Source of the DNA: a virus
Virus record (IMG/VR): IMGVR_UViG_3300009154_003182
Coordinates: 1 to 26,727 of that record
DNA: 26,727 bases
Reading direction: 5' to 3' (one strand)
The position numbers and the translations under genes are program-made. Shown piece after piece: positions 439-17,514 of this stretch (the first letter of the stretch is position 1; every line of letters starts with the position of its first letter). The notes under the pieces are model-generated. The model was not told the origin of the DNA. It did no database searches and saw only the letters and a list, made by a program, of their open reading frames with translations.

Positions 439-878
439 CCATATCCCGTAACATATTCAACCTGGCTCCTGGCGTGAGCACTGGTGGTGTGCTGAACCCC
501 AGTGCTGGCGGCACTGGTTTGTCCACCCTAACTGCCAACAATGTGATCCTGGGTAACGCCACTGGTGCAGTACAATTTGTGGCCCCTGGCACCAACGGTA
601 ATGTGCTCACCAGCAACGGCACCACCTGGACAAGTTCCAGTGCTGGCGCAGGCACAAGCGGGTTCAGTGGTGTGAGTGGATACTCAGGCACAGCAGGTGC
701 AGGAGGCACCGCAGGCACAAGTGGATTCTCAGGCGCAAGCGGCACCAGCCGATACAGTGGTACAAGCGGATTCTCAGGCGCAAGTGGCACCAGTGGATTC
801 TCACATGCGCAATTGCTTGGCTACCCATGTTACTTATTGAAAACAGTCAACAACAGCGTCAGACAGGCGCAGCAGTAG
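435..878 (+). pseudogene. Collagen-like tail fibre, broken copy
   Basis: Translated from codon 435 the frame reads ITISRNIFNLAPGVSTGG, then a TANNVILGN...VQFVAPGT...GTTW segment and Gly-X-Ser triplets, matching the N-terminal half of the intact fibre at 1420-2481. The expected ATG is ATA here: one G-to-A change converts ATGA to ATAA, removing the start while keeping the leader stop. Downstream starts are only GTG (474), without Shine-Dalgarno. The collagen-like part ends near 803, after which the frame runs into about 25 unrelated residues and stops at 878. The receptor-binding C-terminal domains of the intact copy are absent. It could still be expressed weakly from AUA through coupling to the leader ORF. 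Confidence 0.6.
651..803 (+). repeat. Collagen-like Gly-X-Y repeat, first copy
   Basis: About seventeen triplets of the type G-(T/A/V/F/Y)-S, mostly GTSGFSG or GASGTSG, encoded by near-identical 9-18 nt units. This is the usual substrate for slippage and recombination between fibre genes. The same motif recurs at 1633-1806. Confidence 0.8.
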
Positions 879-1259: not shown

Positions 1260-1296
1260 GGGCTGTAAAACACTATAAATAACTGTATAGCAGCCC
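1260..1296 (+). repeat. Inverted repeat flanking the second late promoter
   Basis: GGGCTG (1260-1265) and CAGCCC (1291-1296) are perfect complements, and the 25-nt loop contains the TATAAATA box. An RNA reading through from upstream could fold here; in DNA it could mark a recombination border. Confidence 0.45.
1274..1281 (+). promoter_or_regulatory. T4-type late promoter (TATAAATA)
   Basis: This is a second exact TATAAATA box, 35 nt upstream of AGGAGGT (1316-1322). It would drive the second leader ORF and the intact collagen-like fibre, and probably the RCC1 and modification genes behind it. Confidence 0.7.
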
Positions 1297-1336: not shown

Positions 1337-1423
1337 ATGATTTCTAACCATCAAGCTAAACCCCGTCTTGAACATGGTCCAGTGTGGTCTGTGATATTTA
1401 AAAAACTGGATTCCATAATATGA
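1337..1423 (+). CDS. Short leader ORF before the intact fibre
   Basis: A 28-codon ORF (MISNHQAKPRLEHGPVWS...) from ATG 1337 to TGA 1421-1423, preceded by AGGAGGT 14 nt upstream. Its stop overlaps the fibre start as ATGA (1420-1423). The fibre ATG has no Shine-Dalgarno of its own, so the fibre is probably translated by coupling to this leader. The arrangement mirrors 346-438. Whether the peptide itself does anything cannot be judged. Confidence 0.4.
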   Translation: MISNHQAKPRLEHGPVWSVIFKKLDSII

Positions 1424-2481
1424 CCATTTCACGCAACTTGGCTGACCTTGCCTTAGGTATTGGCAGTTCTGGGATTTTGGGCCCCACCAATGGCGGTACA
1501 TCTGCAACCACACTGACTGCTAACAATGTGATATTGGGAAACGGAACTACTGCTGTTCAGTTTGTGGCTCCAGGTACCAGCGGCAATGCACTTTTCAGCA
1601 ACGGCACAACATGGATAGCCTCAAATATAGCTGGGGCAAGTGGATTCTCAGGCACAAGCGGGATAAGCGGATTCAGTGGAGTCTCAGGTACAAGTGGATT
1701 CAGTGGCGTAAGTGGTGTAAGTGGTGTAAGTGGCGTAAGTGGCTTCAGTGGCGTAAGTGGCTTCAGTGGCATAGGTATCAGCGGCACAAGTGGCTTCAGT
1801 GGACTTGGCAGCGCAGGTGGTGGTGGTGGCTTTAACACAAATAACAATAACGTTATTGGTTTCGCTGTGACTTCCTCACTTTCATCTGTGTATACAGCAT
1901 CAGCCACAGCAGGCCTACGTTATATTATTTACTCTGTGCATATTACAAATATTGGTACTGCTAGTGCCAATATATCTGGCAGTTTCAACGGTAGTACCTA
2001 CTCAAGTATTTCATTTGCTCAGTCAGTGCCATTACCAGTGGGTTCCAGTGTGGAACTCTTCAAGATGCCCAAGATCATGCAGCCATCTGATGTGTTGAGA
2101 CTACAAGCAAGTGCAGATACTACATTGCATGCCACAATCTCGTACGAGACACAAACAAGTTCTGTATTGTTTGGTGCAGGTGTATCCATCACATCAGCCG
2201 CAACTTACACTGATTTATACACTGCAACTGGTGTTTGTGTGGTGCAAAGTGTGCTGTTGTCTAACATAGATACAACATACGATGCCAAAGCTCGCGTGGT
2301 TTGGACAGATGGGTCTAATAACATTCAGGGTTATTACTGTTACGAATTGGTTATACCGCAAGGCGCTACCGTGGAAGTTATGGAAGCGTCAAAAGGATTA
2401 CCAAACGGATACAAAGTTAGAGTGTATTGCAGCGTTGCAAACCGTTTACAAGCCATCATTGCTGGTAAGGTGTCGGCGTAA
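1420..2481 (+). CDS. Collagen-like tail fibre / adhesin
   Basis: 353 residues. An N-terminal attachment-type segment (MTISRNLADLA, then TANNVILGN and GNALFSNGTTW, residues 1-70) is followed by a collagen-like stalk of G-X-S triplets (about 72-130), a poly-Gly linker, and two related C-terminal beta-rich modules (about 145-245 and 250-353). Each module has a YTA...SVxxxNI pattern suggesting an internal duplication. This layout is usual for trimeric phage fibres: N-terminus to the tail, stalk, then receptor-binding head. The stalk contains no Pro or Lys, only Ser/Thr as modifiable side chains. The start overlaps the leader stop (ATGA). The next gene begins one base after its stop, suggesting co-translation with the RCC1 protein. 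Confidence 0.8.
   Translation: MTISRNLADLALGIGSSGILGPTNGGTSATTLTANNVILGNGTTAVQFVAPGTSGNALFSNGTTWIASNIAGASGFSGTSGISGFSGVSGTSGFSGVSGVSGVSGVSGFSGVSGFSGIGISGTSGFSGLGSAGGGGGFNTNNNNVIGFAVTSSLSSVYTASATAGLRYIIYSVHITNIGTASANISGSFNGSTYSSISFAQSVPLPVGSSVELFKMPKIMQPSDVLRLQASADTTLHATISYETQTSSVLFGAGVSITSAATYTDLYTATGVCVVQSVLLSNIDTTYDAKARVVWTDGSNNIQGYYCYELVIPQGATVEVMEASKGLPNGYKVRVYCSVANRLQAIIAGKVSA
1633..1806 (+). repeat. Collagen-like Gly-X-Y repeat, second copy
   Basis: About 19 G-X-S triplets (GFSGVSGVSGVSG and variants) encoded by AGTGGYRTA/TTC-type 9-nt units repeated almost exactly, for example three consecutive GTAAGTGGT-like units near 1708-1740. Length variation by slippage is likely. Confidence 0.8.
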
Positions 2482-3687
2482 ATGAGCGTTAGTACCACAA
2501 CCACCAAAGGCGTCTGGAAGTTACAAGATGTCAGGGATAACATCTTGAATAACCAGTGGACACAAGCAGGCAATTTATATGGCTGGGGTGTTAACAGTTA
2601 TGGTGAATTGGGGGTCAATAATATTGTTGCATGTTATGCGTCACCTATTCAAATCCCCAGCAACTCTTGGAACAGTATAGCGGCGGGTGCTCATTCTCTA
2701 GCTATAAAAACAGATGGCACTTTATGGACTTGGGGATGTAATATTGGAGGTCAATTGGGTGATAACACCAGAGTATCACGATCTTCACCGGTTCAAATTC
2801 CTGGTACCACCTGGAATGACATATCTGCATCAGGACAGTTTTCCTTGGCTAGAAAAACGGATGGAACGTTGTGGTCTTGGGGTAAAGCCTCTGGTGGTAA
2901 TTTGGGTGACGGTACTGTGGTTAATAAATCTTCACCGGTTCAAATTCCTGGTACCACTTGGAATGACATAGCAGCAGCTGGCGACCCTTACAATACCGGT
3001 AATTTTTCTTTAGCTAGAAAAACAGACGGTACGTTATGGGCTTGGGGTTATAATATAGACGGCAATTTAGGTGACAATACTATTGTTAGTAAATCTTCAC
3101 CGGTTCAAATTCCTGGTACCACGTGGAATGACATAGCAGCAGCAGGTATTGTTAATCAATTTAGTGGCGGTGAGCACTTCTTTTCTTTAGCCAGAAAAAC
3201 AGACGGTACGTTATGGGCTTGGGGTGATAACTGTGTGGGTCAATTAGGACAAAACACCATTGTGCGTAGATCTTCACCAGTTCAAATTCCTGGCACCACT
3301 TGGAATGACATAGCAGCAGGCATGTACATGGGACAATTTTTTGGTGGTAATTTTTCTTTAGCTAGAAAAACAGACGGTACTTTATGGGCTTGGGGAGGTA
3401 ACGATTGCGGAATGTTGGGAGACGGCACCGTGATTAATAGATCGTTGCCGGTGCAAATTCCTGGTACCACTTGGAGCAGCATATCAGCAGGCTCAGGTGC
3501 CGCGGATGGTGGTTTTGGGTTAGCGTTAAAAACAAATGGCACTTTATGGGCTTGGGGATATAACTTTTATGGTCAGTTGGGTGATAACACTTTCATAGAT
3601 AAATCTTCCCCGATTCAAATCCCAGGCACTTCCTGGAATCGCATAGCCGCAGGCGGTGGTCATTCTTTAGCTATTATATGCATGTAA
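2482..3687 (+). CDS. RCC1-repeat beta-propeller protein 1
   Basis: 401 residues: a 30-residue N-terminal segment (WKLQDVRDNILNNQW), then seven repeats of about 50-58 residues of the form (L)WAWGxNxxGxLGDNT...SSPVQIPGTTWNDIAAG...SLARKTDGT. Seven repeats is the number needed to close an RCC1-type seven-bladed propeller. The conserved strands are almost identical between blades, while the GYNxxGxLG loop and the loop after IAAG differ in sequence and length. With a fibre gene immediately upstream, the likeliest role is a virion adhesin or fibre tip; no enzymatic motif is visible. The N-terminal WxLxxVxxxI segment resembles short attachment peptides of other phage tail proteins. Eukaryotic RCC1 is a Ran exchange factor, and that role is not implied. 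Confidence 0.75.
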   Translation: MSVSTTTTKGVWKLQDVRDNILNNQWTQAGNLYGWGVNSYGELGVNNIVACYASPIQIPSNSWNSIAAGAHSLAIKTDGTLWTWGCNIGGQLGDNTRVSRSSPVQIPGTTWNDISASGQFSLARKTDGTLWSWGKASGGNLGDGTVVNKSSPVQIPGTTWNDIAAAGDPYNTGNFSLARKTDGTLWAWGYNIDGNLGDNTIVSKSSPVQIPGTTWNDIAAAGIVNQFSGGEHFFSLARKTDGTLWAWGDNCVGQLGQNTIVRRSSPVQIPGTTWNDIAAGMYMGQFFGGNFSLARKTDGTLWAWGGNDCGMLGDGTVINRSLPVQIPGTTWSSISAGSGAADGGFGLALKTNGTLWAWGYNFYGQLGDNTFIDKSSPIQIPGTSWNRIAAGGGHSLAIICM

Positions 3688-3703
3688 AGGGGTAAAAATT
3701 CCA

Positions 3704-4423
3704 ATGAAATATTTCAAATTCACAATGATCGACGCAAAAACGGGAATTTCCATCAACAGACAAACTCCTGTGGAAGGACCCATTATGCCCCCTATTCACG
3801 GCCTGGAAGTGTTGTTTCAGGACACTGCAATCTCGGAATTCTGGTATGGTCGTTCTGGTTCTGAACAAGCTGTTGACGACCCAGAAAATCAAACCTGGGA
3901 AATTTCGTTAGCAGAATTTTCTGAAATCATTGCAATCACAATACAACGATCCATCAATAGGATCCGAGATGATCTTTACACAGCAGAAAAACAAGCAAGG
4001 GACACCATCCTGGGCAAGTATCATGCCACCGCTTCACTTGCTGGCATATACAAGCATGATCAAGCTGTTGCATATCTAAATGATCCCTCTGTGATGGGGT
4101 CAGAGCTGGTTGTGGAAGCTGATGTTCGTGGTGTATCAGTTCATGATTTGGCTTTAAGGATCAAATCCCATCATGAAACATTCAGATTGCAAGAAGCCAC
4201 AATTGCAGGTATTCGTGGCATGTTACTTGATAGACTGAATGATTATGCTTATAATGGAAGTGCGGATCCTTGGGCTGCTTACCAGGATTATCTGAGACCA
4301 GAACAAGTGGGCACAAGATCACAAATGGTTTTCGAAAACGGTGTCATGATAGAGAAACAAATGCCTGTGACTGTGCCTTATCATGGTTATGATATTGTGA
4401 CCAGATTCACCTACAGGAACTGA
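3704..4423 (+). CDS. Hypothetical tail-cluster protein
   Basis: 239 residues, not assigned to a family. The first 65 residues look beta-rich (MKYFKFTMIDAKTG... LEVLFQDTAISEFWYGRSG). Residues about 70-190 are probably helical (RSINRIRDDLYTAEKQAR, HDLALRIKSHHETFRLQEATIAGIRG), and a short beta C-terminus ends in YRN. No signal peptide or membrane helix is seen. The general layout recalls tail-fibre-associated or fibre-assembly proteins that carry a helical DUF4376-like region, but this is only a resemblance. It lies between two RCC1 genes, with a GGGG Shine-Dalgarno 11 nt upstream, so it is probably expressed with them as a structural or assembly factor. Confidence 0.6.
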   Translation: MKYFKFTMIDAKTGISINRQTPVEGPIMPPIHGLEVLFQDTAISEFWYGRSGSEQAVDDPENQTWEISLAEFSEIIAITIQRSINRIRDDLYTAEKQARDTILGKYHATASLAGIYKHDQAVAYLNDPSVMGSELVVEADVRGVSVHDLALRIKSHHETFRLQEATIAGIRGMLLDRLNDYAYNGSADPWAAYQDYLRPEQVGTRSQMVFENGVMIEKQMPVTVPYHGYDIVTRFTYRN

Positions 4424-4425
4424 TC

Positions 4426-5565
4426 ATGACCATCACAGTAAACAAATGTGGCCCCTGGCTGCTTGATGAAGTGTATCAGAAGATCAATGCTGGGAACTAC
4501 ACTTTTAGTTCCAGACTTTATGCTTGGGGATGTAATGCAGCTGGGCAGCTAGGTCAAAATGATACTATCAGTAGGTCCTCACCAGTTCAAATTCCTGGTA
4601 CTTGGAGTAGTGTAACAGCAGGTTATGGATTTTCGTTTGGTATAAAACCAGATAACACGCTTTGGGCTTGGGGATGTAACACCTACGGACAACTTGGTGA
4701 TGGTACTGTAATTTCTAAATCATCACCAGTTCAAATTCCAGGATCCACTTGGTGTAAAATTTCATCGGGCGGTGGTGGAAGAACAACTTTAGGATTACAA
4801 ACAGATGGTACTATGTGGGGTTGGGGATTTAATAATAACGCAGGATCTTGTTTAATACCAGAAGGTTCTGGCTTAACACGTTCTTCACCAACCCAAATTC
4901 CAGGTACTACTTGGAATGATATTTGCATGGCGCAATACAATGGGTATGCAAGAAGAACCGACGGGACTCTTTGGGCTTGGGGTGAAGGGACTTATGGTGC
5001 TGTGGGAGATAATACTGCTTCATTGAGAAATTCTCCTGTTCAAATTCCAGGTACTACCTGGAATGATATATCAGCAAATGCCACCGGTGGTGCTGGTTCG
5101 GCATATGCTAGAAGAACGGATGGTACTTTATGGGCTTGGGGATATAATAATTATGGTCAAGTAGATAGTACTATTACCCAGAGATCTTCACCTATACAAA
5201 TTCCTGGTACTACCTGGAATGAAGTATCTGCAGGTTCACTTCATGCTTTAGCCAGAAGAACAGATGGTACTCTTTGGGGATGGGGTTATAATGGTTATGG
5301 TAATTTAGCTCAAAATAATACCGTGGCTTATTCATCGCCAGTTCAAATTCCCGGAACCACTTGGAATAGCATCGGCAAAGGTGAATTTGGTGTAAATAAT
5401 TTAGCTACTAAAACCGATGGAACCATGTGGGCATGGGGCTATAATTTGGTTGGTGGTTTAGGTGATGGTACTACTATTAATAGATCATCACCAGTTCAAA
5501 TTCCCGGTAGTGCATGGATATCTGTTAGTATAGCACAAATTAATGGCTTAGCAATTTCATGCTAA
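4426..5565 (+). CDS. RCC1-repeat beta-propeller protein 2
   Basis: 379 residues: a short N-terminal segment (PWLLDEVYQKINAGNY) equivalent to that of the first RCC1 protein, then seven RCC1-type repeats with the signature AWGxNxxGQLGD...SSPVQIPGTTWN...ARRTDGTLW. It is more diverged than the other two: blade 3 carries an unusual FNNNAGSCLIPEGSGL loop and blade 5 has lost the LGD motif. No enzymatic residues are apparent. It starts 2 nt after the upstream stop. Its 3' end overlaps the next gene, a 2OG oxygenase, by 7 nt, which ties adhesin and modifying enzyme into one translational unit. Confidence 0.75.
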   Translation: MTITVNKCGPWLLDEVYQKINAGNYTFSSRLYAWGCNAAGQLGQNDTISRSSPVQIPGTWSSVTAGYGFSFGIKPDNTLWAWGCNTYGQLGDGTVISKSSPVQIPGSTWCKISSGGGGRTTLGLQTDGTMWGWGFNNNAGSCLIPEGSGLTRSSPTQIPGTTWNDICMAQYNGYARRTDGTLWAWGEGTYGAVGDNTASLRNSPVQIPGTTWNDISANATGGAGSAYARRTDGTLWAWGYNNYGQVDSTITQRSSPIQIPGTTWNEVSAGSLHALARRTDGTLWGWGYNGYGNLAQNNTVAYSSPVQIPGTTWNSIGKGEFGVNNLATKTDGTMWAWGYNLVGGLGDGTTINRSSPVQIPGSAWISVSIAQINGLAISC

Positions 5566-6128
5566 CCAATCCATTTCAACATATATCAATCCAGTATAAC
5601 GCGATCCCGTCACACATTTGTGATTATCTACTGTCAAAGGCGCAAACACCTCTACCTACGACTGTGTTCAACGATGGTCAACAAAAAATCTCTGATTATC
5701 GTATAACCAATTCACACCATCTAGATCAAGAAACCATCGACAATATCAAAAACACAGTCGCTAATATACACAAAGATCTTCCGTTCAAATCAACCCTAAA
5801 ATCAATCGAGACTCCTCAGTTGCTGTCATACTCAACCGACGGCAAATACGACGAGCATAACGATTCGGAAGACTTCATAAATAATAAGCTAACTCGGATT
5901 GTTCCTCGTGACATAACCATGATCTTCTACCTAAATGATGATTATGAAGGCGGGGAACTAGAGTTCACAAAACTTCAAATCACTTATAAACCCAAGAAAG
6001 GTGACATCATCGCCTTTCCCAGTTATTATGAATATTCGCATCGAGTGCATCCTATCAAACAAGGAACCAGATATGCACTTGTCACATGGATGGAAACGGA
6101 GACTAGATTGTATGAGCGAAACACTTGA
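5559..6128 (+). CDS. 2-oxoglutarate/Fe(II) oxygenase, prolyl-4-hydroxylase type
   Basis: 189 residues with a double-stranded beta-helix core. The iron ligands are visible as H100-N-D102 (DEHND) and H161 in SHRVHPIKQGTR, with R171 as the expected 2-oxoglutarate carboxylate ligand. The spacing and the FYLND...GGELEF...GDIIAFPS pattern fit the P4H-like family, which hydroxylates Pro/Lys or similar groups using O2 and 2-oxoglutarate. There is no signal peptide. It overlaps the preceding RCC1 gene by 7 nt and the next oxygenase gene by 17 nt. A plausible substrate is the Pro-Gly in each RCC1 blade (IPGTTW) or a sugar or surface component; this is inference. All catalytic residues are present. Confidence 0.85.
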   Translation: MLTNPFQHISIQYNAIPSHICDYLLSKAQTPLPTTVFNDGQQKISDYRITNSHHLDQETIDNIKNTVANIHKDLPFKSTLKSIETPQLLSYSTDGKYDEHNDSEDFINNKLTRIVPRDITMIFYLNDDYEGGELEFTKLQITYKPKKGDIIAFPSYYEYSHRVHPIKQGTRYALVTWMETETRLYERNT

Positions 6129-6711
6129 ACCAAATCCCGAATACGAACATCATGGATTCATAATCCTCAGGAATTTTATTCCTGAGTTCATGGCTGATTA
6201 TTTCAGGAATTATTTAGAGACACTTAGGCTAACCGATAAGATGGAATCAGGTGATGGCCAAGTTTCTCAATCCGATTGCATTTACGGTGATCCTGCACTT
6301 GACACATTTATGGCGATGTCGACACCGATTATCTCTAAGGCAATTGGTAGAGCTCTGCTTCCCACATACACCTATTCCAGAATCTACAAACCTGGAGCCA
6401 CTCTGGATCCACACACAGACAGATCAGAATGTGAACATTCTGTGTCCATCAGTTTTGGGGGAGAGTATGATGCCATTTGGCCCATGTGGTTGATTGACCC
6501 TGAAGTGCATGGCAGTCCACATGTGGCTGATCTGTATCCAGGCGACTGTGTGGTGTATAAAGGAACCCAACTAACTCATTGGCGCCAAGAATTTCTGGGT
6601 AAGACTCAATACCAAACATTCATGCATTATGTGGATGCAAATGGTGCATTCAAACACAGACTGTATGACACTAGACCCTATCTGGGCATGAGGGCAAGCA
6701 CCAAGCGATGA
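6112..6711 (+). CDS. 2-oxoglutarate/Fe(II) oxygenase, second family
   Basis: 199 residues from ATG 6112; the frame is open further upstream, but that stretch lies inside the preceding gene, and MSETLEPNPEYEHHGFIILRNF is a natural N-terminus. Iron ligands: H101-T-D103 (LDPHTD) and H156 in THWR, with R158 near the 2OG site. The pattern YSRIYKPGATLDPHTDR ... SISFGG ... GDCVVYKGTQLTHWR is that of phage and bacterial 2OG oxygenases distinct from the neighbouring P4H type. Substrate unknown. The 3' end overlaps the next gene by ATGA (6708-6711). Two different 2OG oxygenases in tandem suggest either two sequential oxidations or two substrates in the adhesin/glycan pathway. Confidence 0.8.
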   Translation: MSETLEPNPEYEHHGFIILRNFIPEFMADYFRNYLETLRLTDKMESGDGQVSQSDCIYGDPALDTFMAMSTPIISKAIGRALLPTYTYSRIYKPGATLDPHTDRSECEHSVSISFGGEYDAIWPMWLIDPEVHGSPHVADLYPGDCVVYKGTQLTHWRQEFLGKTQYQTFMHYVDANGAFKHRLYDTRPYLGMRASTKR

Positions 6712-7847
6712 CTGACATAGCCAAAGAACTATTTGACAAAAAGGACTTTCAGGGTTCACTTCAATACATGACTGAACTTCATGGTCAAGAGGGTTATGAT
6801 AGAGACGGTCTGAAGTTGAATATGGCTAAATGTTTCTATCATTTACAAAGAGCCGACCTGGCGGAAAAACTGCTGTATCAAATTGCACAACTTGATGATA
6901 ATGGCATGACTGATCTGGCTTTGTATAAGAATGCTCAGGGTAAGTTTGATGAAGCACACCTCATGTACAAATCCATCCACACACCACAAGCCAGGTTCAA
7001 TCTGGCTTGGCATCTGTTAAGGGAACACCAGTTTCTGGAAGGCATGCAATTACTAAATTCTGGTAGAGATCTTGGAGTATTCGGTTCGGCTCATCATTAT
7101 GGTGTGGATTACTCCAGAGTGTACACAGGTGGAAAAGCGAACAAACTGGCAGTGTTGATGGAGGGTGGTCATGGAGATGAATTGATCTTTGCTCGTTGGC
7201 TGCCTCATGTGGCTGAATTTTGTAATCACATGCAAGTGTATTGCAGTAAGGGCATGGTTCCGCTTTTTAGACAGTTTGGGTTTGATGCTCATGATCATGA
7301 TCTGTTCAGGGGGGCTGACTATGATCAGTTTGTGCCCAGCATGGCCATCCCAGTATTGTTCAAACTGGAACATCCCCTGGCAGAGTGTGTGATGCCCTTC
7401 CTGCCTTCACACTCTGGCCACACTGGTAAGATTGGCATCAAATATCGTGGTAATCCAGAATTTGAACATGATCAGTTTAGAGAAATTCCCATTGAGATCT
7501 TTGAGGGTGTGGAACAATATGGTGAGCTTGTGGACCTACAGCTGGACCACATACTCACAAACAAGGGCATCAAGGTGGGTAAACACATAAACACCTGGGT
7601 GGACACTTATAATGTGATTAATCAATTGGATTTGGTGATCACCAGTTGCACCAGTGTGGCTCATCTTTCTGCATCCATGGGTAAATACACCATCATATTG
7701 GTGCCCCTGATGTCCTACTTTGTATGGCAGGGTTTACCTTGGTATGGAGAACGTGTGAAGGTCATCAAGCAAAGTGTTTATGGCTCTTGGCAGGAATCCG
7801 AACAAGAATTACATAACTTTTTAGGTGGCAAATGTCCGGTACGCTAA
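6708..7847 (+). CDS. TPR domain plus GT9-like (GT-B) glycosyltransferase
   Basis: 379 residues. The first ~130 form three to four TPR-like helical pairs (FDKKDFQGSLQYMTELHG, KCFYHLQRADLAEKLLYQIA, KNAQGKFDEAHLMYKSI). The rest matches the heptosyltransferase-like GT9 GT-B fold: MEGGHGDELIFARWLPHV at the N-domain nucleotide loop and LVITSCTSVAHLSASMGKYT in the C-domain, the typical DLVIsxDTSvAHLAgAlGkp motif. TPR-GT9 fusions generally transfer sugars to proteins or lipopolysaccharide-like acceptors. Acceptor and donor cannot be deduced. It is coupled to the upstream oxygenase (ATGA) and overlaps the third RCC1 gene by 16 nt, so it is expressed with both. Confidence 0.75.
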   Translation: MTDIAKELFDKKDFQGSLQYMTELHGQEGYDRDGLKLNMAKCFYHLQRADLAEKLLYQIAQLDDNGMTDLALYKNAQGKFDEAHLMYKSIHTPQARFNLAWHLLREHQFLEGMQLLNSGRDLGVFGSAHHYGVDYSRVYTGGKANKLAVLMEGGHGDELIFARWLPHVAEFCNHMQVYCSKGMVPLFRQFGFDAHDHDLFRGADYDQFVPSMAIPVLFKLEHPLAECVMPFLPSHSGHTGKIGIKYRGNPEFEHDQFREIPIEIFEGVEQYGELVDLQLDHILTNKGIKVGKHINTWVDTYNVINQLDLVITSCTSVAHLSASMGKYTIILVPLMSYFVWQGLPWYGERVKVIKQSVYGSWQESEQELHNFLGGKCPVR

Positions 7848-8974
7848 AAACTAATGTGTTCACTCTCAACAAAATGTACCAGGTGATCGTGGATGGGTGT
7901 ATTGGTGTATACAACGCGAAATATGATCCAGGCGAATTGTGGGTTTGGGGATATAATGTGCACGGCGAGTTAGGTGATAACACTACTAATTGTAAATCGT
8001 CTCCAGTTCAAATTCCAGGCACTACATGGATTGATATATCTGGTGGAGGAAGTTTTGTGGGTTTTTCTTTAGCCAGAAAAACAGATGGTACTTTATGGTC
8101 TTGGGGTACAAATGGAACGGGTCAGTTAGGTGATGGAACTATCCTAAGGAAATCTTCACCAGTCCAAATTCCTGGCACTACTTGGAATGATATAGCAGCA
8201 GGTAGTACCCATTCTTTAGCCAGAAAAACAGATGGCACTCTATGGGCTTGGGGCGCTGGCGGCGCATTAGGCGATAATACTATCGTTAGCAAATCATCAC
8301 CTGTCCAAGTACCTGGCACTACTTGGAATGATATAGCAGCAGGCACTGGTTTTTCTTTAGCCAGAAAAACAGATGGTACTTTATGGGCTTGGGGATCTAA
8401 TAGTTTTGGTGGATTAGGCGATAATACTATCGTTAGCAAATCATCACCTGTCCAAGTACCTGGTACCACCTGGAATGATATAGCGGCTCTTGGATATTCA
8501 CTGGCCAGGCAAACTGATGGTACTTTATGGGCTTGGGGAATTAATCAATACGGTCAGTTAGGAGATAGTACAGTTATTAGCAAATCTTCACCTGTTCAAA
8601 TTCCTGGCACTACTTGGAATGATATAGCAGCAGGCACTAGTTATTCTTTAGCCAGAAAAACAGATGGTACTTTATGGGCTTGGGGAGTTAATGCTTATGG
8701 TACATTAGGTGATGGAACTACCAACTGGAGATCATCGCCAGTTCAAATTCCTGGCACTACTTGGAATGATATAGCGGCAGCAGTATCTGGCGATATTGCA
8801 TATGCACTAGCCAGAAGAACTGATGGTACTCTATGGGCTTGGGGTGATAACAGTTGGGGTCAGTTAGGAGATAGTACGGTTATTAGCAAAAGTTCACCAG
8901 TTCAAATTCCTGGCACCAACTGGAATGATATATCAGCTGGTTATGCTCATGCTTTAGCTCGTAAAGTTGTATAA
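7832..8974 (+). CDS. RCC1-repeat beta-propeller protein 3
   Basis: 380 residues: a 35-residue N-terminal segment, then seven repeats of the WGxNxxGxLGDNT...SSPVQIPGTTWNDIAAG...SLARKTDGTLW type. The third blade is the shortest because its AWGAGGALGD loop is contracted. Blades 3 and 4 share a 51-nt identical stretch (8266-8316 and 8413-8463), so recent duplication or gene conversion is evident. Closer to RCC1 protein 1 than to protein 2. The start lies inside the TPR-GT9 gene (16-nt overlap) and the stop overlaps the GT25 start (TAATG), embedding this adhesin between two glycosyltransferases. Probable virion-surface adhesin; no catalytic motif seen. Confidence 0.75.
   Translation: MSGTLKTNVFTLNKMYQVIVDGCIGVYNAKYDPGELWVWGYNVHGELGDNTTNCKSSPVQIPGTTWIDISGGGSFVGFSLARKTDGTLWSWGTNGTGQLGDGTILRKSSPVQIPGTTWNDIAAGSTHSLARKTDGTLWAWGAGGALGDNTIVSKSSPVQVPGTTWNDIAAGTGFSLARKTDGTLWAWGSNSFGGLGDNTIVSKSSPVQVPGTTWNDIAALGYSLARQTDGTLWAWGINQYGQLGDSTVISKSSPVQIPGTTWNDIAAGTSYSLARKTDGTLWAWGVNAYGTLGDGTTNWRSSPVQIPGTTWNDIAAAVSGDIAYALARRTDGTLWAWGDNSWGQLGDSTVISKSSPVQIPGTNWNDISAGYAHALARKVV
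8266..8463 (+). repeat. 51-nt direct repeat within RCC1 protein 3
   Basis: Positions 8266-8316 and 8413-8463 are identical over 51 nt (start ATTAGGCGATAATAC), spaced 147 nt apart, exactly one 49-residue blade. This exceeds what protein constraint needs, since neighbouring blades use different codons. It points to recent unequal recombination or gene conversion. Confidence 0.8.
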
Positions 8975-9645
8975 TGATCTCTCTACATAATTCGTATGAA
9001 ACGTTAATTGAATCCACTTACATCATTACTCTACCAAAAAATCCCATAAGTGTGCAATTGACCGACAGATGCATCACATCACTCAATCAAGTTCAACAGC
9101 CATACACCCTATGGGAAGGATTTGATGGCACTCAATCCACGTTAGAGATACCACACCATCTCAAAAACAAGTCACACATTCTGTTCCCAAAACTGGTGTT
9201 CACCGAACTTTCCCATGCTCAGCAGGGTTGTTTCCTGAGTCATTATTCTCTTTGGTGTCATTGTTTAGAGATTGACCAACCCATCACCATCCTGGAACAT
9301 GATGCTGTGATGATCAAACCATACACAAAACATGCGCTGTATAATTCCATCATCTACCTGGGATCCTGGGAACAATACAATGGTGAGCCCATTTATGCCA
9401 CTCCTCCGCATGCCTCTGACTATCAAGGACATTTGAGATCACTTTGCAGATCACATGCTTATTCCATCGATCCTGCGGTGGCCAGACATTTAGTTTCATA
9501 CACCATCAGAAATGGCTTGATAAATAGTTTGGACATGATGATCAGAGCAGATCTGTTCCCCATGGCCATGTTTGATCTTTATGCGTTTGACGCACCTGCA
9601 CCTTCCACAATTGCGAGAAATAATAATGAACAACCAGTTACGTGA
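8974..9645 (+). CDS. GT25-family glycosyltransferase
   Basis: 223 residues. The N-terminal YIITLPKNP, then LWEGFDG, LSHAQQGCFLSHYSLW and ITILEHDAVM (E108-H109-D110) are the hallmark order of GT25 enzymes. This family includes lipooligosaccharide galactosyltransferases (LgtB/LpsA type) and the procollagen galactosyltransferases. GT25 members are GT-A inverting enzymes using UDP-sugars. The later HAYSIDPAVARHL segment is the conserved Y-x-I/L-S region. It starts by TAATG overlap with RCC1 protein 3. The acceptor could be a phage adhesin or a host surface glycan. The family assignment is firm, the acceptor unknown. Confidence 0.85.
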   Translation: MISLHNSYETLIESTYIITLPKNPISVQLTDRCITSLNQVQQPYTLWEGFDGTQSTLEIPHHLKNKSHILFPKLVFTELSHAQQGCFLSHYSLWCHCLEIDQPITILEHDAVMIKPYTKHALYNSIIYLGSWEQYNGEPIYATPPHASDYQGHLRSLCRSHAYSIDPAVARHLVSYTIRNGLINSLDMMIRADLFPMAMFDLYAFDAPAPSTIARNNNEQPVT

Positions 9646-10084
9646 TCTTTATGTGGACTTTCAAATTGCAGATTTTGATGATGATCTGATTGCAATTTGT
9701 GTCAGAACAGTTAATATATTGAAATGGGGATTCCAGGAGGCATCAGAGGGTGAATTTGAACCAGCTCAAAATGAATGGCCAAGCAGGTTTTTTAAACTTC
9801 AGCCCCATTTTCCCTCCATGAAAAACAGAAAGTCATGCAGACAAGCATTGGATTATGCAATGAAACTTGAACAGGAACATGAAGTCAGGGTAGTCAATAT
9901 CATGACCACCATGATTGCCATCACCTATGTGTACCATTTACCAACTGTAGGTCTGTATGACGCAGCCAAAAATAACATGGAGTTCGGTAGGAAAGAGGCT
10001 GAACTCATGCTGATTGAAGACAAGATGAGCACTAACTGGATCAAAGAACCTTCCCATAGAGATTTTTCAAATATCCTTCTATGA
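9626..10084 (+). CDS. Hypothetical protein in the glycosylation cluster
   Basis: 152 residues from ATG 9626 (MNNQLRDLYVDF); earlier in-frame starts lie inside the GT25 gene and give an unlikely N-terminus. Acidic, mostly helical, with a hydrophobic stretch around VVNIMTTMIAITYVYHLP that is too interrupted for a confident membrane helix. No known motif recognised. It overlaps the GT25 end by 20 nt and the next gene by ATGA (10081-10084), so it is translated within the sugar-transfer operon; a helper or acceptor role is possible but unsupported. Confidence 0.6.
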   Translation: MNNQLRDLYVDFQIADFDDDLIAICVRTVNILKWGFQEASEGEFEPAQNEWPSRFFKLQPHFPSMKNRKSCRQALDYAMKLEQEHEVRVVNIMTTMIAITYVYHLPTVGLYDAAKNNMEFGRKEAELMLIEDKMSTNWIKEPSHRDFSNILL

Positions 10085-10707
10085 CAAGAAAATGCATTCA
10101 TGTGGTCCGAATTGGCAATTATTTGCCTGAGCTCTGGGCAATCACTTATCCTAATATCAAGACATACGCCGATAGAATCAGAAGTGATCTAAACATAATC
10201 ACAACTAGAAAATACCCTTTATGGAATGTGTTATATGAAAAGATGCAGGTTTATGAATACGGCATAAACTATGATCACAACTTCCTGCTAGACATGGATG
10301 TTTTGATCCACCACCAATTTCCAGACTTCTCTACTATCTGTAATAAGTATCATGTGGGTTTCAATGACAACTTTTTTGCCACTGATTACTTTGATACCCG
10401 CAATCCATACTTTGAACGTGATGGCAGAAATGTGGGTATAGCATCAAATGCTGTGATCACTTGTAGGCACACTCATGATCTTTGGTGCCCACTGCCATAT
10501 GATCACGAACAAGTCAAACAGTATCTACTTCATTCAAGAAGCGGAGTTGACGAATTCGCTTTGTCGTTTAATCTAGCTAGATATGGTTTGAAGTACAACG
10601 GCATCACCTGGGAAGATTGGCAACGTTATTACTTTGTGCATCTGGGCACAGGTGAAAATCCCATCAGTCAAGCTAACATGATCTTATCAAAATGGAAAAG
10701 TGAATGA
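10081..10707 (+). CDS. GT-A glycosyltransferase, GT8-like
   Basis: 208 residues. The FLLDMDVLIHHQF motif (D71-M-D73) is a typical metal- and nucleotide-sugar-binding DxD following a beta strand. Upstream, YPNIKTYADRIRSD and KYPLWNVLYEKMQVYEYG match the pattern common in small GT8-like enzymes of phages and marine bacteria. GVDEFALSFNLARYG near residue 160 would be the DE-containing active-site helix. Donor and acceptor unknown. Overlaps the preceding and following genes by ATGA. A related but distinct assignment (another GT-A family) is possible. Confidence 0.65.
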   Translation: MTRKCIHVVRIGNYLPELWAITYPNIKTYADRIRSDLNIITTRKYPLWNVLYEKMQVYEYGINYDHNFLLDMDVLIHHQFPDFSTICNKYHVGFNDNFFATDYFDTRNPYFERDGRNVGIASNAVITCRHTHDLWCPLPYDHEQVKQYLLHSRSGVDEFALSFNLARYGLKYNGITWEDWQRYYFVHLGTGENPISQANMILSKWKSE

Positions 10708-11621
10708 GAAACACCACCTTTATGCTGACTGGAGGCGCAGGTCGAATTATTTGTGCAATCCCGGTTTTGGAAAAATATCATCGGTTGAATCCCAATGACA
10801 ATTTCAAAGTGATTGTGCATGGATGGGAGCATTTATACTGGAATCATCCCTTGCTTCAGCAAAGAACATTTGGGGTTGGCCAGAAAGGCATGTTTGACCT
10901 ATTGATCAAAGATAATAATTTGGTCTCCCCAGAACCATATTTTCGTTGGTCATATTACAATCAAAAAAAGTCCATGATTGAGGCTTTTGACGAAGAGATC
11001 AATCACACAGACGATCATGGTGACTTGTTGCCGCCAAAACTTTACTGTCATAATAATGAAATTGAGACTGCTAGAACCATGATTCAGCAAGCTCTGGACA
11101 TGAAGAAAAAGAAAAAGTTCATAGTGTATCAGCCGTATGGTAGCGGCATCCAAGTTGTGAACAACAGGCCCATGGATGCATCATCCAGAAGTCTGGATGT
11201 GGATCATGCACTGAAGCTGGGCAGATTATTATCTCAAGATGCAGTGGTCTTATACTTTGGTCCTAGCGAATACATTCATCCCCAGGATGATTTCATGCTG
11301 AATGCTAAGAACATACCAAATGTGGATCTGAGATTTTACATGGCCATGATTTCACAATGTGATTATTTTGTGGGGTGTGATTCTGTGGGTCAGCACATGG
11401 CAAGGGCGTTTGGAAAACCAGGCACTGTGATTTTGGGATCCACATTTGCTCAGAATGTTTCTTACCCAGACTGGTTCAACATCTATAAGAAACAAGGAAT
11501 GACCATATACAATCCCATGCGAATATCCGGACCAGACTCTGAATTTGCTGATAGGCTCAATCATGACTCCATGACCTTCACAGATGAACAACTGAATGAA
11601 ATTTACAGGACTTGCAAATGA
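10704..11621 (+). CDS. GT9-like (heptosyltransferase-fold) glycosyltransferase
   Basis: 305 residues in a GT-B arrangement. The N-domain begins TGGAGRIICAIPVLEKYH, where a glycine loop follows strand 1. The C-domain has FIVYQPYGSG and SQCDYFVGCDSVGQHMARAFGKPGTVILGST, the GT9 donor-site pattern. Comparable to the TPR-GT9 protein at 6708 and to the split GT9 at 16068/17045. It probably transfers a heptose-like or other sugar; specificity is not predictable. Starts by ATGA overlap with the GT8-like gene and ends by ATGA overlap with the methyltransferase (11618-11621). Confidence 0.7.
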   Translation: MRNTTFMLTGGAGRIICAIPVLEKYHRLNPNDNFKVIVHGWEHLYWNHPLLQQRTFGVGQKGMFDLLIKDNNLVSPEPYFRWSYYNQKKSMIEAFDEEINHTDDHGDLLPPKLYCHNNEIETARTMIQQALDMKKKKKFIVYQPYGSGIQVVNNRPMDASSRSLDVDHALKLGRLLSQDAVVLYFGPSEYIHPQDDFMLNAKNIPNVDLRFYMAMISQCDYFVGCDSVGQHMARAFGKPGTVILGSTFAQNVSYPDWFNIYKKQGMTIYNPMRISGPDSEFADRLNHDSMTFTDEQLNEIYRTCK

Positions 11622-12226
11622 CCAATTATAATTTCTTCCAATTCCACGATTTTATTAAGGGTAGTGTTACATCCATTATAGATATAATCGGCGTACCACA
11701 AACAGTGATTGAGATTGGAGTGTTCTACGGGCATTTCACTTTCAACATGGTGGAGAGTACTGCTTGTCTAAATCCAACGTATCGTCATTATGCTATTGAT
11801 CCTTACGGATACTCACACGATCTAGAAGATGCAGACATCAAAAAAGCATACGATGCATTCACTCATAACTTGTCAATATGTCCTTACAAATCTAATGTGG
11901 AGTTCATGAGACAAAACTCTACCCCTGCGTTGTTAGAGTTATTGTACAGAAAAGTCAAAGCGGATTTGATCTATATTGACGGAGATCATAGAGCTTCGGG
12001 GGTTCTAAAAGATCTTGTTCTTTCCTGGGAATTATTAAAAGTGGGCGGTGCTATCTTATGTGATGACTCTCACACATGGGTATACACAGACAAGAATAGA
12101 GAAAAGCCTGTGCAGATGTCACCCAAACTGGCAATAGACAATTTCATTCATTGTAACTGGGATAAACTGGAACCCATTCTGTTACCCAATGGTTATCAAA
12201 CAGCATTTATTAAGAGAGCAGACTGA
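11618..12226 (+). CDS. Class I SAM-dependent methyltransferase
   Basis: 202 residues starting at ATG 11618, which overlaps the upstream stop as ATGA; a TTG two codons earlier is the only in-frame alternative. The motif order VIEIGVFYGHFTFNM (motif I, SAM-binding), AIDPYG, ADLIYIDGDHRASGVLKDL and VGGAILCDDSH fits the Methyltransf_24-like families (cephalosporin hydroxylase/TylF-like relatives), which methylate sugars or small molecules. D in IDGDH probably binds metal. In this context it may O-methylate a transferred sugar. It ends the first sugar-gene unit; 12227-12374 is non-coding and holds a promoter. Confidence 0.75.
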   Translation: MTNYNFFQFHDFIKGSVTSIIDIIGVPQTVIEIGVFYGHFTFNMVESTACLNPTYRHYAIDPYGYSHDLEDADIKKAYDAFTHNLSICPYKSNVEFMRQNSTPALLELLYRKVKADLIYIDGDHRASGVLKDLVLSWELLKVGGAILCDDSHTWVYTDKNREKPVQMSPKLAIDNFIHCNWDKLEPILLPNGYQTAFIKRAD

Positions 12227-12345
12227 CCGTCTGTAAACTGGATGTCGGAATAGGCTCACCAATCTGTTAATCAGTCATTTAGTGACAATGTTATGCGATC
12301 CTTATGGGATATTAACATGTTTGTGTGTTATTTGAGTCTGGTCTA

Positions 12346-12374
12346 TTGAAAGGTTTAGATTTAGATCCTATAAT
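12346..12374 (+). promoter_or_regulatory. Sigma-70-like promoter, leaderless geometry
   Basis: TTGAAA (12346-12351), 17-nt spacer, TATAAT (12369-12374). The ATG of the GT2-FkbM gene at 12381 begins 6 nt after the -10 box, so transcription would start at or next to the start codon and the mRNA would be leaderless. The 148 nt upstream contain no other gene; a weak GTCA/TGAC hairpin lies near 12278-12290. Confidence 0.65.
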
Positions 12375-12380
12375 GTGATC

Positions 12381-13838
12381 ATGACCCATACCTTCAAATA
12401 TTCCATCATCATACCCACCTATAATCACTGTGATGATTTGCTCAAACCTTGCATAGACAGTGTGATAGCATACAGCCGTATGACTGATGTGGAACTGGTT
12501 ATCAGCGCCAATGGCTGCACAGACAACACCAGAGCATATCTGGACCAACTAAAAGCTCAATTTGAAAACATGGGTTTTGGTGATCATTTGACAGTGGTGT
12601 GGCACGATGAACCACTGGGTTTTAGTCGTGCTGTGAATGCAGGAATAAAAGCAAGCTCTGGTGCTCGTGTGCTATTGTTGAACAACGATGTCATACTGCT
12701 GCATCAACCACGTAACACATGGTTGAACAGACTGAATGCACCTTTTGAATCAGACTCCACTGTGGGTATTACCACCACACTCATGTTGCACTCTCCGCAA
12801 ACTGGCAGAGACTTTGCAGTGTTTTTCTGTACCCTGATTGATCAGAGACTGATTGAGCAGATTGGCATGTTGAACGAAGCATATGGTGTGGGTGCAGGAG
12901 AAGATACCGAATACTGTTTCATGGCAGAAGAGGCAGGTTGGCGTGTGGTGGGTGTAGCCAAAACCAGATATGAACCCAGCATTGGCACCAACGCTAGTGA
13001 CTTCCCCATCTGGCACAAAGCAGAAGGCACCATGCATGATCCCATATTGGTGCCCAACTGGACAGAGCTGTTCAACAACAACACCATCATGCTACAAGAA
13101 AAGTTCACTCCTGATTATTTGGTACAATCTCCCCAGGAAATTGCAGAAAAGTTTCCTCAGCTGTTGATTCCCGATGCTGAAACTCCTGCATTGTTTGCAG
13201 AGGTGTTCACAAACAATTCATACCACTTGAGCCTGGGTCATGTGCGCAATAAAGAGGTGATTGATATAGGTGCTAATGTGGGATTTTTTAGTGTGGCGGC
13301 AGCAGCACTGGGAGCAAGCAGAGTTTGGGCTTATGAACCTGTGAGTGTGACTCACGACAAATTGTTGAACAGTGTGAATACCACCGGACTTTCACATAAA
13401 ATCAAATGCCACAAACAAGCAGTCATGGGCTTGCCCACACCACCATTGATGATGGGGTTGCATGATCTTCATGGTAGTAACAGTGTGTACAAACAAAGTG
13501 AGCAATCTGAACTGGTTCCAGTGACCACATTGACTGATATCATGAAACAAACATTCAGTCACAATGTGATCCTAAAACTGGATTGTGAAGGCGCAGAATT
13601 CGACATCATACTGGATACTGCTCCTGAAGTGTTTGATCGCATCAAATGCATACATTTGGAAATTCACACCAACCTGCATCCTGTGCATAAAACTAGAGAA
13701 GTAATCACAGACAGACTGTTACAGTTGGGATTCAAACGTGTACACAGTCACAATATAGGCATTTATTGGTACAATGCCCAAGGAGAAGTAGTTAGTTGGA
13801 CACCTGGTCATTATTTTGTGGAAATGTGGCAGAAGTGA
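12381..13838 (+). CDS. GT2 glycosyltransferase fused to FkbM methyltransferase (copy 1)
   Basis: 485 residues from ATG 12381; GTG 12375 is in frame but lies against the -10 box. Residues about 1-235 form a GT2 GT-A domain: YSIIIPTYNHCDDLLKPC, SANGCTDNT, the donor-site LLLNNDV and GAGEDTEYCFMAEEAG, with the ED expected at the catalytic base. Residues about 270-485 form an FkbM methyltransferase: VIDIGANVGFFSVAAAALG, VWAYEP, LKLDCEGAEFDI and HLEIH. The fusion probably adds a sugar and O-methylates it. It starts a separate transcription unit. The same fusion recurs at 14605, and the GT2 part alone at 13858. Codons are rich in GTG/CAC/ACA compared with the RCC1 genes. Confidence 0.85.
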   Translation: MTHTFKYSIIIPTYNHCDDLLKPCIDSVIAYSRMTDVELVISANGCTDNTRAYLDQLKAQFENMGFGDHLTVVWHDEPLGFSRAVNAGIKASSGARVLLLNNDVILLHQPRNTWLNRLNAPFESDSTVGITTTLMLHSPQTGRDFAVFFCTLIDQRLIEQIGMLNEAYGVGAGEDTEYCFMAEEAGWRVVGVAKTRYEPSIGTNASDFPIWHKAEGTMHDPILVPNWTELFNNNTIMLQEKFTPDYLVQSPQEIAEKFPQLLIPDAETPALFAEVFTNNSYHLSLGHVRNKEVIDIGANVGFFSVAAAALGASRVWAYEPVSVTHDKLLNSVNTTGLSHKIKCHKQAVMGLPTPPLMMGLHDLHGSNSVYKQSEQSELVPVTTLTDIMKQTFSHNVILKLDCEGAEFDIILDTAPEVFDRIKCIHLEIHTNLHPVHKTREVITDRLLQLGFKRVHSHNIGIYWYNAQGEVVSWTPGHYFVEMWQK

Positions 13839-13857
13839 ACAAGAATAATCAATACCC

Positions 13858-14583: not shown

Positions 14584-14604
14584 CCCTAACACCAAGGATT
14601 CATA

Positions 14605-17048: not shown

Positions 17049-17491
17049 TTGTGATAAGTGCCTGGGCCAAACAATTACCTGATAACCATGTTAACCCAAA
17101 AAACTATCCTTGGTGGCCAGAACTTATAAGCAAGTTACCACAGCCCATTGTGCAAGTGGGTCTGCCAGGTGAAACACAACTGGTGCCCGATTTCCAATGT
17201 GGCCTAAGTCTGGAAGATTTGGCATCACTCATTCAGGAATGTGACTTTTGGATCAGCTGTGACTCCTTTGTGCAGCATTATGCATGGGACTTGGGTAAGC
17301 CTGGTGTGGTGCTGTGGGGACCCAGTGATCCCATAATTTATGGACATCCAGAAAACATGAACATCACAAAAGGTAGGGAGTTTCAATCAAAAGAGCAATT
17401 TCTCATGTGGCATTTGATTGAAAATAGAACAGACTGGTGGCACACACCTGATCATATCATATACATGATCAAACAGAAATACAATTGGTGA
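17045..17491 (+). CDS. GT9-like C-terminal domain as a separate protein
   Basis: 148 residues from ATG 17045 (ATGA overlap with the preceding stop). MIVISAWAKQLPDN resembles the first strand of a GT-B C-domain. LIQECDFWISCDSFVQHYAWDLGKPGVVLWGPSDP is the GT9 donor-site motif, also seen in the complete proteins at 6708 and 10704. It lacks any N-domain, which is present at the C-terminus of the preceding GT2 protein. The two chains therefore probably reassemble into one GT-B enzyme. An alternative is an old nonsense or frameshift split; the precise start/stop overlap argues for stable two-chain expression. Confidence 0.7.
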   Translation: MIVISAWAKQLPDNHVNPKNYPWWPELISKLPQPIVQVGLPGETQLVPDFQCGLSLEDLASLIQECDFWISCDSFVQHYAWDLGKPGVVLWGPSDPIIYGHPENMNITKGREFQSKEQFLMWHLIENRTDWWHTPDHIIYMIKQKYNW

Positions 17492-17514
17492 TCATGACCA
17501 CCTAAATATTGATT

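What the first reader, a model, noticed from the sequence alone, without database searches (positions are those of the whole stretch)
1420..9645. Possible adhesin-modification system: hydroxylases and GT25 interlocked with collagen-like and RCC1 proteins
Two different 2OG/Fe(II) oxygenases, a TPR-GT9 and a GT25 are interleaved, by overlapping start/stop codons, with RCC1 adhesins behind a collagen-like fibre. Prolyl-4-hydroxylases act on Pro-Gly contexts, and nearly every RCC1 blade carries IPG. GT25 includes the enzymes that glycosylate hydroxylysine of collagen. The collagen stalk has only Ser/Thr, so hydroxylation would more likely target the propellers and glycosylation either. Together this could be a phage pathway that hydroxylates and glycosylates its own receptor-binding proteins to vary recognition or shield the virion.
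Basis: inference. Interest (0 to 1): 0.7.

Follow-up and report, generated by a model that had tools for sequence, protein, structure and literature searches.

The report
Phage adhesins with dedicated modifying enzymes
A T4-like aquatic phage carries three beta-propeller adhesin genes interlocked with two prolyl-hydroxylase-like enzymes and a glycosyltransferase that, in every related phage found, occurs together with these propellers, which suggests (but does not prove) that the phage chemically decorates its own host-binding proteins.

Summary
At 1420-9645 a collagen-like protein, three 7-bladed RCC1 propellers, two 2OG/Fe(II) oxygenases (OGa, OGb), a TPR-glycosyltransferase (TPR-GT) and a GT25 run in one overlapping gene string. 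The same order recurs in about ten other viruses, directly behind T4-like baseplate genes in one, and in a related arrangement in isolated cyanophage S-SRM01. Best supported is the TPR-GT: all 47 TPR-GT-anchored loci carry RCC1 genes, only 1 of 50 control phage records has either (it has both), and its model resembles TPR protein-glycosyltransferases (OGT/SPINDLY). The P4H-IPG idea gained unexpected support: blade Pro-Gly tracks module-type OGa (205 seen vs 75 expected with it; 29 vs 109 without) and is not general RCC1 sequence. But these phages form one clade, so this is one evolutionary event. Generic 2OG enzymes are common without RCC1 (21/50 controls). The collagen stalk has no Pro or Lys, so collagen-type hydroxylation there is excluded; the GT25-hydroxylysine link is unsupported. 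By-product: OGb's family, annotated 'ferrochelatase' in many marine phages, folds as a prolyl-hydroxylase-like oxygenase.

The parts
1420..2481 (+). collagen-like fibre protein (G-X-S repeats, no Pro or Lys in the stalk)
   Evidence: PF01391 24.2 bits, phrog tail-fibre profiles; composition; module position conserved
2482..3687 (+). RCC1 propeller a, N-terminal tag KGVWKLQDVRDNIL
   Evidence: PF00415/PF25390; position-specific N-terminus
3704..4423 (+). g3, conserved protein of unknown function between RCC1 a and b (possibly assembly factor)
   Evidence: conserved in L003-L005, L007, L010, L011, L016, L226; only weak phrog matches
4426..5565 (+). RCC1 propeller b, 7 IPG blades
5559..6128 (+). 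OGa, 2OG/Fe(II) oxygenase, P4H/PKHD-like, intact HxD...H...R
   Evidence: PF13640 3.6e-17; best PDB match B. anthracis P4H 3e-9; invariant H100, D102, H161 and R171 within the module subfamily
6112..6711 (+). OGb, second 2OG oxygenase (family annotated 'ferrochelatase' in phages)
   Evidence: phrog_2954 1.3e-44; invariant H99, D101, H154; AF2 pLDDT 94.5, top hits P. putida P4H-EF-Tu and PHD2
6708..7847 (+). TPR-glycosyltransferase, GT-B, OGT/SPINDLY- and GT9-like
   Evidence: AF2 pLDDT 88.4 and fold search; linkage to RCC1
7832..8974 (+). RCC1 propeller c, 5 IPG + 2 VPG blades
8974..9645 (+). GT25-family glycosyltransferase
   Evidence: PF01755 3.8e-12; also in RCC1 modules without OGa
9626..10084 (+). 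conserved unknown gene of the module's downstream part
   Evidence: homologues in L004 and L064 at the same position
10081..10707 (+). conserved unknown gene of the module's downstream part
   Evidence: homologues in L003, L004, L010, L064
10704..11621 (+). GT9-like glycosyltransferase (weak Pfam match)
   Evidence: PF01075 0.0074; homologues L004, L064
11612..12226 (+). methyltransferase (Methyltransf_24)
   Evidence: PF13578 3.7e-15
1274..1281 (+). TATAAATA, T4-type late-promoter-like site 146 nt before the collagen-like gene
   Evidence: 2 in window, 0.93 expected by chance; same element just before coll or g3 in relatives

Best explanation
This is the adhesin locus of a T4-like (Kyanoviridae-related) aquatic phage, with a dedicated post-translational decoration set. 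A collagen-like fibre protein and three RCC1 propellers, each with its own N-terminal 'address' of about 30 residues, are probably built onto the baseplate/tail-fibre apparatus. The TPR-GT, whose gene always accompanies RCC1 genes, most likely binds the propellers through its TPRs and glycosylates Ser/Thr (SSPVQ-IPG loops or similar) in the cytoplasm before assembly. In this clade OGa and OGb, both prolyl-hydroxylase-like, most likely hydroxylate the loop proline of the repeated [IV]PG turn; other clades use a fused or separate sulfotransferase and a different 2OG oxygenase instead. Shown: gene order, conservation, linkage, predicted folds, the motif-enzyme co-distribution. Inferred: virion location here, substrate, chemistry, and function (altered receptor binding, stability, or shielding).
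For: Same order coll-RCC1-g3-RCC1-OGa-(OGb)-TPR-GT-...-RCC1-GT25 in L003, L004, L005, L007, L010, L016 and, right behind a baseplate wedge gene, L226/G014; related arrangement in isolated cyanophage S-SRM01 behind baseplate and tail-fibre genes. TPR-GT: 47/47 TPR-GT-anchored loci have RCC1, 57/78 RCC1-anchored loci have TPR-GT; among 50,697 phage records TPR-GT occurs in 4, all with RCC1; in 50 whole control records with the same baseplate gene RCC1 1, TPR-GT 1, the same record. TPR-GT model resembles TPR-bearing protein glycosyltransferases OGT/SPINDLY and GT9/TibC. Module-type OGa in 12 distinct viruses, all with RCC1. Pro-Gly in RCC1: 205 observed vs 75 expected with OGa, 29 vs 108.5 without; 135 loci without OGa have 0 PG in 2049 blade linkers. 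OGa best solved match is a P4H, OGb fold best match P4H/PHD2. Late-promoter-like TATAAATA within about 30-150 nt before coll or g3 in several members. An RCC1 protein, GAP32 gp1, was found in virions by MS (PMC5259590).
Against: No modification is shown. OGa-bearing TPR-GTs are one clade (100/99), so OGa-IPG is one event and may be shared ancestry. Four PG-bearing fragments (L009, L046, L051, L064) show no OGa, though all are fragments. P4H-like 2OG pairs are common in phages without RCC1 and their neighbours show no PG excess. S-SRM01 has RCC1 and a 2OG enzyme but no IPG. NCBIfam places OGa nearest PiuC/YbiX PKHD hydroxylases of unsettled substrate, below cut-off. Fold scores for the TPR-GT are weak (TM about 0.4). 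OGb is absent between OGa and TPR-GT in L004 and G014.
Confidence: 0.5

Rival explanations
1. The enzymes remodel the host surface (LPS/O-antigen or capsule) to block superinfection, and merely lie in the same hypervariable host-recognition region as the adhesins.
For: This is the published reading for glycosyltransferases in the host-recognition cluster of pelagimyophages and cyanophages (PMC7029224; PMC7824862). Downstream genes 10704-17491 (GT9, GT2, GT2+FkbM, methyltransferase) look like a polysaccharide set.
Against: The TPR-GT is tied to RCC1 genes and was not found in RCC1-less relatives, which host-surface work would not need; TPR-GT and the oxygenases lie between RCC1 paralogues in conserved order; the TPR-GT fold points to protein acceptors; late-promoter-like sites suit virion-time expression.
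Confidence: 0.2
2. OGa/OGb act on a host protein (for example EF-Tu, as the Pseudomonas prolyl hydroxylase does) or other host targets in takeover, not on the adhesins; only the TPR-GT modifies RCC1.
For: The top OGb fold hit is the P. putida P4H bound to EF-Tu; OGa+OGb-like pairs occur in phages without RCC1 (about 29 of 80 OGa-anchored loci; 156 phage records for OGb); generic PF13640 in 21 of 50 control records, 20 of them without RCC1.
Against: The module-type OGa subfamily is found only with RCC1 (12/12 viruses) and its presence tracks the blade PG motif.
Confidence: 0.15
3. The 2OG enzymes are auxiliary metabolic genes that drain or sense 2-oxoglutarate to steer host nitrogen metabolism.
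For: Proposed for cyanophages, which carry many 2OG enzymes (PMC3037559; PMC9602691).
Against: Does not explain fixed placement between adhesin genes, the RCC1-only OGa subfamily or the PG correlation.
Confidence: 0.05
4. IPG is only a structural turn of this RCC1 lineage, inherited with the module; the co-occurrence with OGa is shared ancestry without function (this concerns the hydroxylation half only and can be true together with the other rivals).
For: All OGa-bearing members form one clade in the TPR-GT tree; blades are homogenised within genomes.
Against: Both have been kept together over deep divergence (TPR-GT 35-39% identity to the window within the clade) and in a conserved gene order; Pro-Gly is depleted in other RCC1 phages and rare in bacterial RCC1.
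Confidence: 0.25

Closest known systems
Bacterial autotransporter heptosyltransferases (TibC/Aah with TibA/AIDA-I)
   Same: GT9-type-fold protein glycosyltransferase that hyperglycosylates an adhesin (PMC4358343; 4rap in fold search)
   Different: Phage-encoded; TPR domain instead of TibC's beta-barrel, thumb and iron finger; substrate propellers rather than autotransporter passenger domains; activity untested
O-GlcNAc transferase / SPINDLY (GT41)
   Same: N-terminal TPR superhelix plus C-terminal GT-B domain; top fold hits
   Different: Weak similarity (TM about 0.35, about 10% identity), much shorter TPR part; GT part also resembles GT9
Mycobacteriophage virion glycosylation
   Same: Phage structural proteins carry glycans (Freeman 2023, as cited in PMC12619734)
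   Different: Targets there are capsid and tail tube; no hydroxylases; no RCC1
Mimivirus collagen hydroxylation/glycosylation
   Same: Virus with collagens and collagen-modifying enzymes (PMC9546862)
   Different: Hydroxylysine in real collagens; here the stalk has no Lys or Pro
2OG/'ferrochelatase' clusters of marine T4-like phages and pelagiphages (HTVC008M, Syn9, S-SCSM1)
   Same: OGb homologues among several 2OG genes, near baseplate, tail-fibre or other virion genes
   Different: No RCC1, no TPR-GT; no PG enrichment near OGa-like genes in RCC1-less loci
Prolyl 4-hydroxylases (B. anthracis P4H, P. putida PPHD, PHD2)
   Same: Sequence (OGa) and fold (OGb) best matches, catalytic HxD...H
   Different: Low identity; PKHD/PiuC is an equally plausible relative of OGa

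Membership tests
Prolyl 4-hydroxylase (2OG/Fe(II) dioxygenase) | HxD...H iron triad and downstream basic residue | tested here: met
   OGa H100/D102/H161/R171, OGb H99/D101/H154/R156, conserved in the alignments
Prolyl 4-hydroxylase (2OG/Fe(II) dioxygenase) | closest structural/sequence relatives are P4Hs rather than other 2OG enzymes | tested here: inconclusive
   OGa: P4H 3e-9 in PDB but PKHD/YbiX-type 5e-15 in NCBIfam, below cut-off; OGb: P4H/PHD2 top by fold, TM 0.66-0.71
Prolyl 4-hydroxylase (2OG/Fe(II) dioxygenase) | hydroxylates peptidyl proline | not testable with these tools
   needs peptide or MS assay
Protein O-glycosyltransferase with TPR (OGT/SPINDLY, GT41) | TPR array plus GT-B catalytic domain | tested here: met
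   AF2 model and fold search; TPR profiles
Protein O-glycosyltransferase with TPR (OGT/SPINDLY, GT41) | detectable GT41 sequence homology | tested here: not met
   no GT41 Pfam or NCBIfam match; hence 'works like', not 'is'
Bacterial autotransporter heptosyltransferase | acts on an adhesin; here tested only as linkage to an adhesin gene | tested here: inconclusive
   47/47 loci with RCC1; that RCC1 is the substrate is inferred
Bacterial autotransporter heptosyltransferase | N-terminal beta-barrel, iron finger, dodecamer | tested here: not met
   N-terminal half is helical TPR in the model; iron finger and oligomer state not tested
Collagen | Gly-X-Y repeats above the family cut-off, with imino acids | tested here: not met
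   24.2 vs 27.2 bits, 0 Pro in the stalk; triple helix still possible
GT25 (PF01755) | profile match above cut-off | tested here: met
   46.9 vs 24 bits
GT25 (PF01755) | hydroxylysine acceptor (collagen branch of the family) | not testable with these tools
   no Lys in the stalk; no lysyl hydroxylase recognised
RCC1 virion adhesin | protein present in virions | not testable with these tools
   indirect only: GAP32 gp1 by MS (PMC5259590); baseplate neighbourhood

The most novel reading that the evidence does not exclude
A phage adhesin-maturation pathway: P4H-type enzymes hydroxylate the repeated [IV]PG turn of RCC1 propeller adhesins, and an OGT-like TPR-glycosyltransferase dedicated to these propellers glycosylates them, with clade-specific add-ons (sulfation, other oxidation) that alter or shield the receptor-binding surface. 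It would be the first hydroxyproline-bearing, enzyme-decorated phage receptor-binding proteins known to me.
Probability: 0.3. Interest if true: 0.85.

Novelty: new variant of a known kind. Interest (0 to 1): 0.62.

Why it matters
Many marine and freshwater phages carry unexplained 2OG oxygenases and glycosyltransferases in their host-recognition regions; published readings are host LPS change or nitrogen metabolism. Here two enzymes have a specific, testable partner: the TPR-GT is tied to RCC1 propellers, and an oxygenase subfamily co-varies with a repeated motif in the same propellers. If shown, phage host range could be set partly by post-translational chemistry that no genome-based tail-fibre analysis sees. 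The correction of 'ferrochelatase' also removes a wrong metabolic story from many phage annotations.

Tried and rejected
Rejected: IPG as the universal RCC1 consensus (bacterial loci mostly carry SPVQVG-type loops; about 5% of rough regex matches contain PG; 135 loci without OGa have 0 PG in 2049 linkers). Rejected: the collagen stalk as hydroxylase/GT25 target (no Pro or Lys). Rejected: generic '2OG gene near tail fibre' as evidence (21/50 controls). Tried: PG enrichment near OGa in RCC1-less phages, none (obs/exp 0.95, the same as control). The first baseplate control used 10-kb flanks that might miss the module, so it was repeated on 50 whole records (searches failed on the handle limit). 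An OGb scan of viral contigs found nothing. hhalign of OGb against OGa is weak (E 0.008, prob 5%), so OGb's class rests on the model and the motif. g3 gave only weak phrog matches. The window has no megablast match among phages. The loose OGa-anchored scans mostly returned distant P4H-like genes.
Full report
Source and place. The window is a complete 26,727-base IMG/VR virus record with no close relative among phage records. Its first bases are the end of a gene that resembles the C-terminus of the long-tail-fibre protein of S-SRM01 (inference). In L226 (record G014) the same module lies behind a T4-type baseplate wedge gene, and in the isolated Kyanoviridae phage S-SRM01 RCC1, unknown, RCC1, TPR protein, 2OG, RCC1 and sulfotransferase genes follow the baseplate and tail-fibre genes. 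So this is most likely the tail-fibre/host-recognition region of a T4-like phage.

Anatomy. 1420-2481 collagen-like; 2482-3687 RCC1 a; 3704-4423 g3 (unknown, conserved); 4426-5565 RCC1 b; 5559-6128 OGa; 6112-6711 OGb; 6708-7847 TPR-GT; 7832-8974 RCC1 c; 8974-9645 GT25; then 9626-12226 further conserved genes and a polysaccharide-like set to 17491. From RCC1 b to GT25 neighbouring genes overlap by 1-17 nt. TATAAATA sites lie at 305 and 1274 (about 0.9 expected by chance); in relatives the same word lies just before coll (L003, L016) or before g3 (L003, L010, L011), which suits T4-type late expression. This is suggestive only.

Conservation. The order coll-RCC1-g3-RCC1-OGa-OGb-TPR-GT-(..)-RCC1-GT25 recurs, as far as the contigs reach, in L003, L005, L007, L010 and L016, with OGb missing from that slot in L004 and G014. 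A second layout, without OGa, is short coll-RCC1-RCC1-TPR-GT-RCC1-GT25-methyltransferase (L020, L048, L054 and others), in which the TPR-GT has an N-terminal sulfotransferase domain. S-SRM01-like phages instead carry a separate PF13759 2OG gene and a separate sulfotransferase.

TPR-GT and RCC1. From TPR-GT as anchor, 47/47 viral loci hold RCC1; from RCC1 as anchor 57/78 hold TPR-GT, many of the rest being cut by contig ends. In 50,697 phage records TPR-GT occurs in four (three phages), all of which have RCC1. In 50 whole records chosen by the baseplate wedge gene, RCC1 and TPR-GT occur once each, in the same record, while a generic 2OG domain (PF13640) occurs in 21. In 39 bacterial RCC1 loci no TPR-GT was found within about 6 kb. 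The model (pLDDT 88) has an N-terminal TPR array and a GT-B-like part whose best solved matches are the TPR protein glycosyltransferases OGT and SPINDLY, then GT9 heptosyltransferases and TibC (TM 0.3-0.4, weak). The linkage is shown; RCC1 as the substrate is inferred.

Oxygenases. OGa has an intact HxD...H...R and is nearest B. anthracis P4H among solved structures, but nearest PKHD/YbiX-type models in NCBIfam, below cut-off. OGb is barely seen by Pfam; its alignment has invariant HxD...H, and its model (pLDDT 94.5) matches P. putida P4H/EF-Tu and PHD2 best. phrog_3531 joins both in one protein, and fused OGb-OGa genes are seen in several RCC1-less loci.

Motif test. The window has 18 IPG and 2 VPG in 21 blades. 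I asked whether this is ordinary RCC1 sequence. It is not: 135 loci without module-type OGa (phage and bacterial) show 0 PG in 2049 blade linkers, and further loci only isolated cases. Module-type OGa (over 130 bits; next best hit 112) was found in 12 distinct viruses, all with RCC1 genes (L006's OGa lies about 17 kb or more from its RCC1 array, and L008, L014, L015 and L024 are second arrays of OGa-bearing records). PG in RCC1 is 205 observed vs 75 expected from composition with OGa, and 29 vs 108.5 without; the other genes of the module show no PG excess (127 vs 117). Exceptions: L009, L046, L051 and L064 carry PG but show no OGa; they are fragments of 7.5-31 kb. The main caveat is that the TPR-GT tree puts the OGa-bearing modules in one clade (100/99; a second, distant TPR-GT-like gene of L010 falls outside). 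There is thus one joint gain, not many. The co-retention over deep divergence is real, but independent evidence is lacking.

Other tests. Each RCC1 paralogue has a position-specific N-terminus (first 28 residues: mean identity 0.51 between the same positions of different viruses, 0.32-0.35 between positions), while blade linkers are more alike within a virus (0.78) than between viruses (0.67). This suits three differently addressed adhesins whose propellers recombine or convert within a genome (inference). The collagen stalk has neither Pro nor Lys. GT25 occurs in RCC1 modules with and without OGa.

Literature. RCC1 proteins in phages are mostly unexplained; GAP32 gp1 was detected in virions (PMC5259590), and phAPEC6 encodes eleven (PMC7247149). 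2OG genes of cyanophages are read as nitrogen-related (PMC3037559), GTs in host-recognition regions as LPS-modifying (PMC7029224; PMC7824862). An Fe(II)-dependent oxygenase is among the most frequent genes of the variable islands of marine phages and is listed under host recognition there (PMC3909814). No held paper found describes an RCC1-TPR-GT or RCC1-P4H link; the library is open-access only.

Conclusion. A conserved gene module, to my knowledge undescribed, that most likely modifies phage propeller adhesins; glycosylation by the TPR-GT is the better supported half, proline hydroxylation of IPG a specific and now better motivated hypothesis, GT25-hydroxylysine chemistry unsupported.

Noticed in passing
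window 6112-6711; phrog_2954; 156 phage records: Proteins annotated 'ferrochelatase' in cyanophages and pelagiphages are 2OG/Fe(II) oxygenases with a prolyl-hydroxylase-like fold; a published heme/iron interpretation (PMC9599517) rests on that name.
   Followed up: yes
L020:7683-9500 and about 20 other loci: In a sister clade the RCC1-linked TPR-GT carries a fused N-terminal sulfotransferase domain; S-SRM01-like phages have a separate one.
   Followed up: partly
window 2482-8974 and L003-L016: RCC1 paralogues have position-specific N-terminal tags but blades homogenised within each virus, as if propellers recombine between adhesins.
   Followed up: partly
window 3704-4423: Conserved protein g3 always between RCC1 a and b in this clade; function unknown, perhaps an assembly factor.
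   Followed up: partly
L006, L008, L014, L050, L051: Tandem arrays of several large RCC1 genes, in some cases in the same viruses as the module but at a separate place.
   Followed up: no
window 12375-16068: Three tandem GT2 genes, two of them fused to FkbM methyltransferase domains, evidently duplicated.
   Followed up: no
window 474-878: A second, shorter collagen-like reading frame whose end looks unrelated; perhaps a truncated fibre gene.
   Followed up: no
window 24496-26527, minus strand: Three tandem paralogues with leucine-rich-like repeats (N-x-L-T-S/N-L-x-G-A-P), seen in the translations only.
   Followed up: no
window 17509-18093: RyR-domain protein (PF02026, 6.5e-16) next to the glycan genes.
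   Followed up: no
NC_020484 (L282), NC_008296 (L287): 2OG clusters near virion genes together with a tryptophan halogenase, in HTVC008M and Syn9.
   Followed up: no
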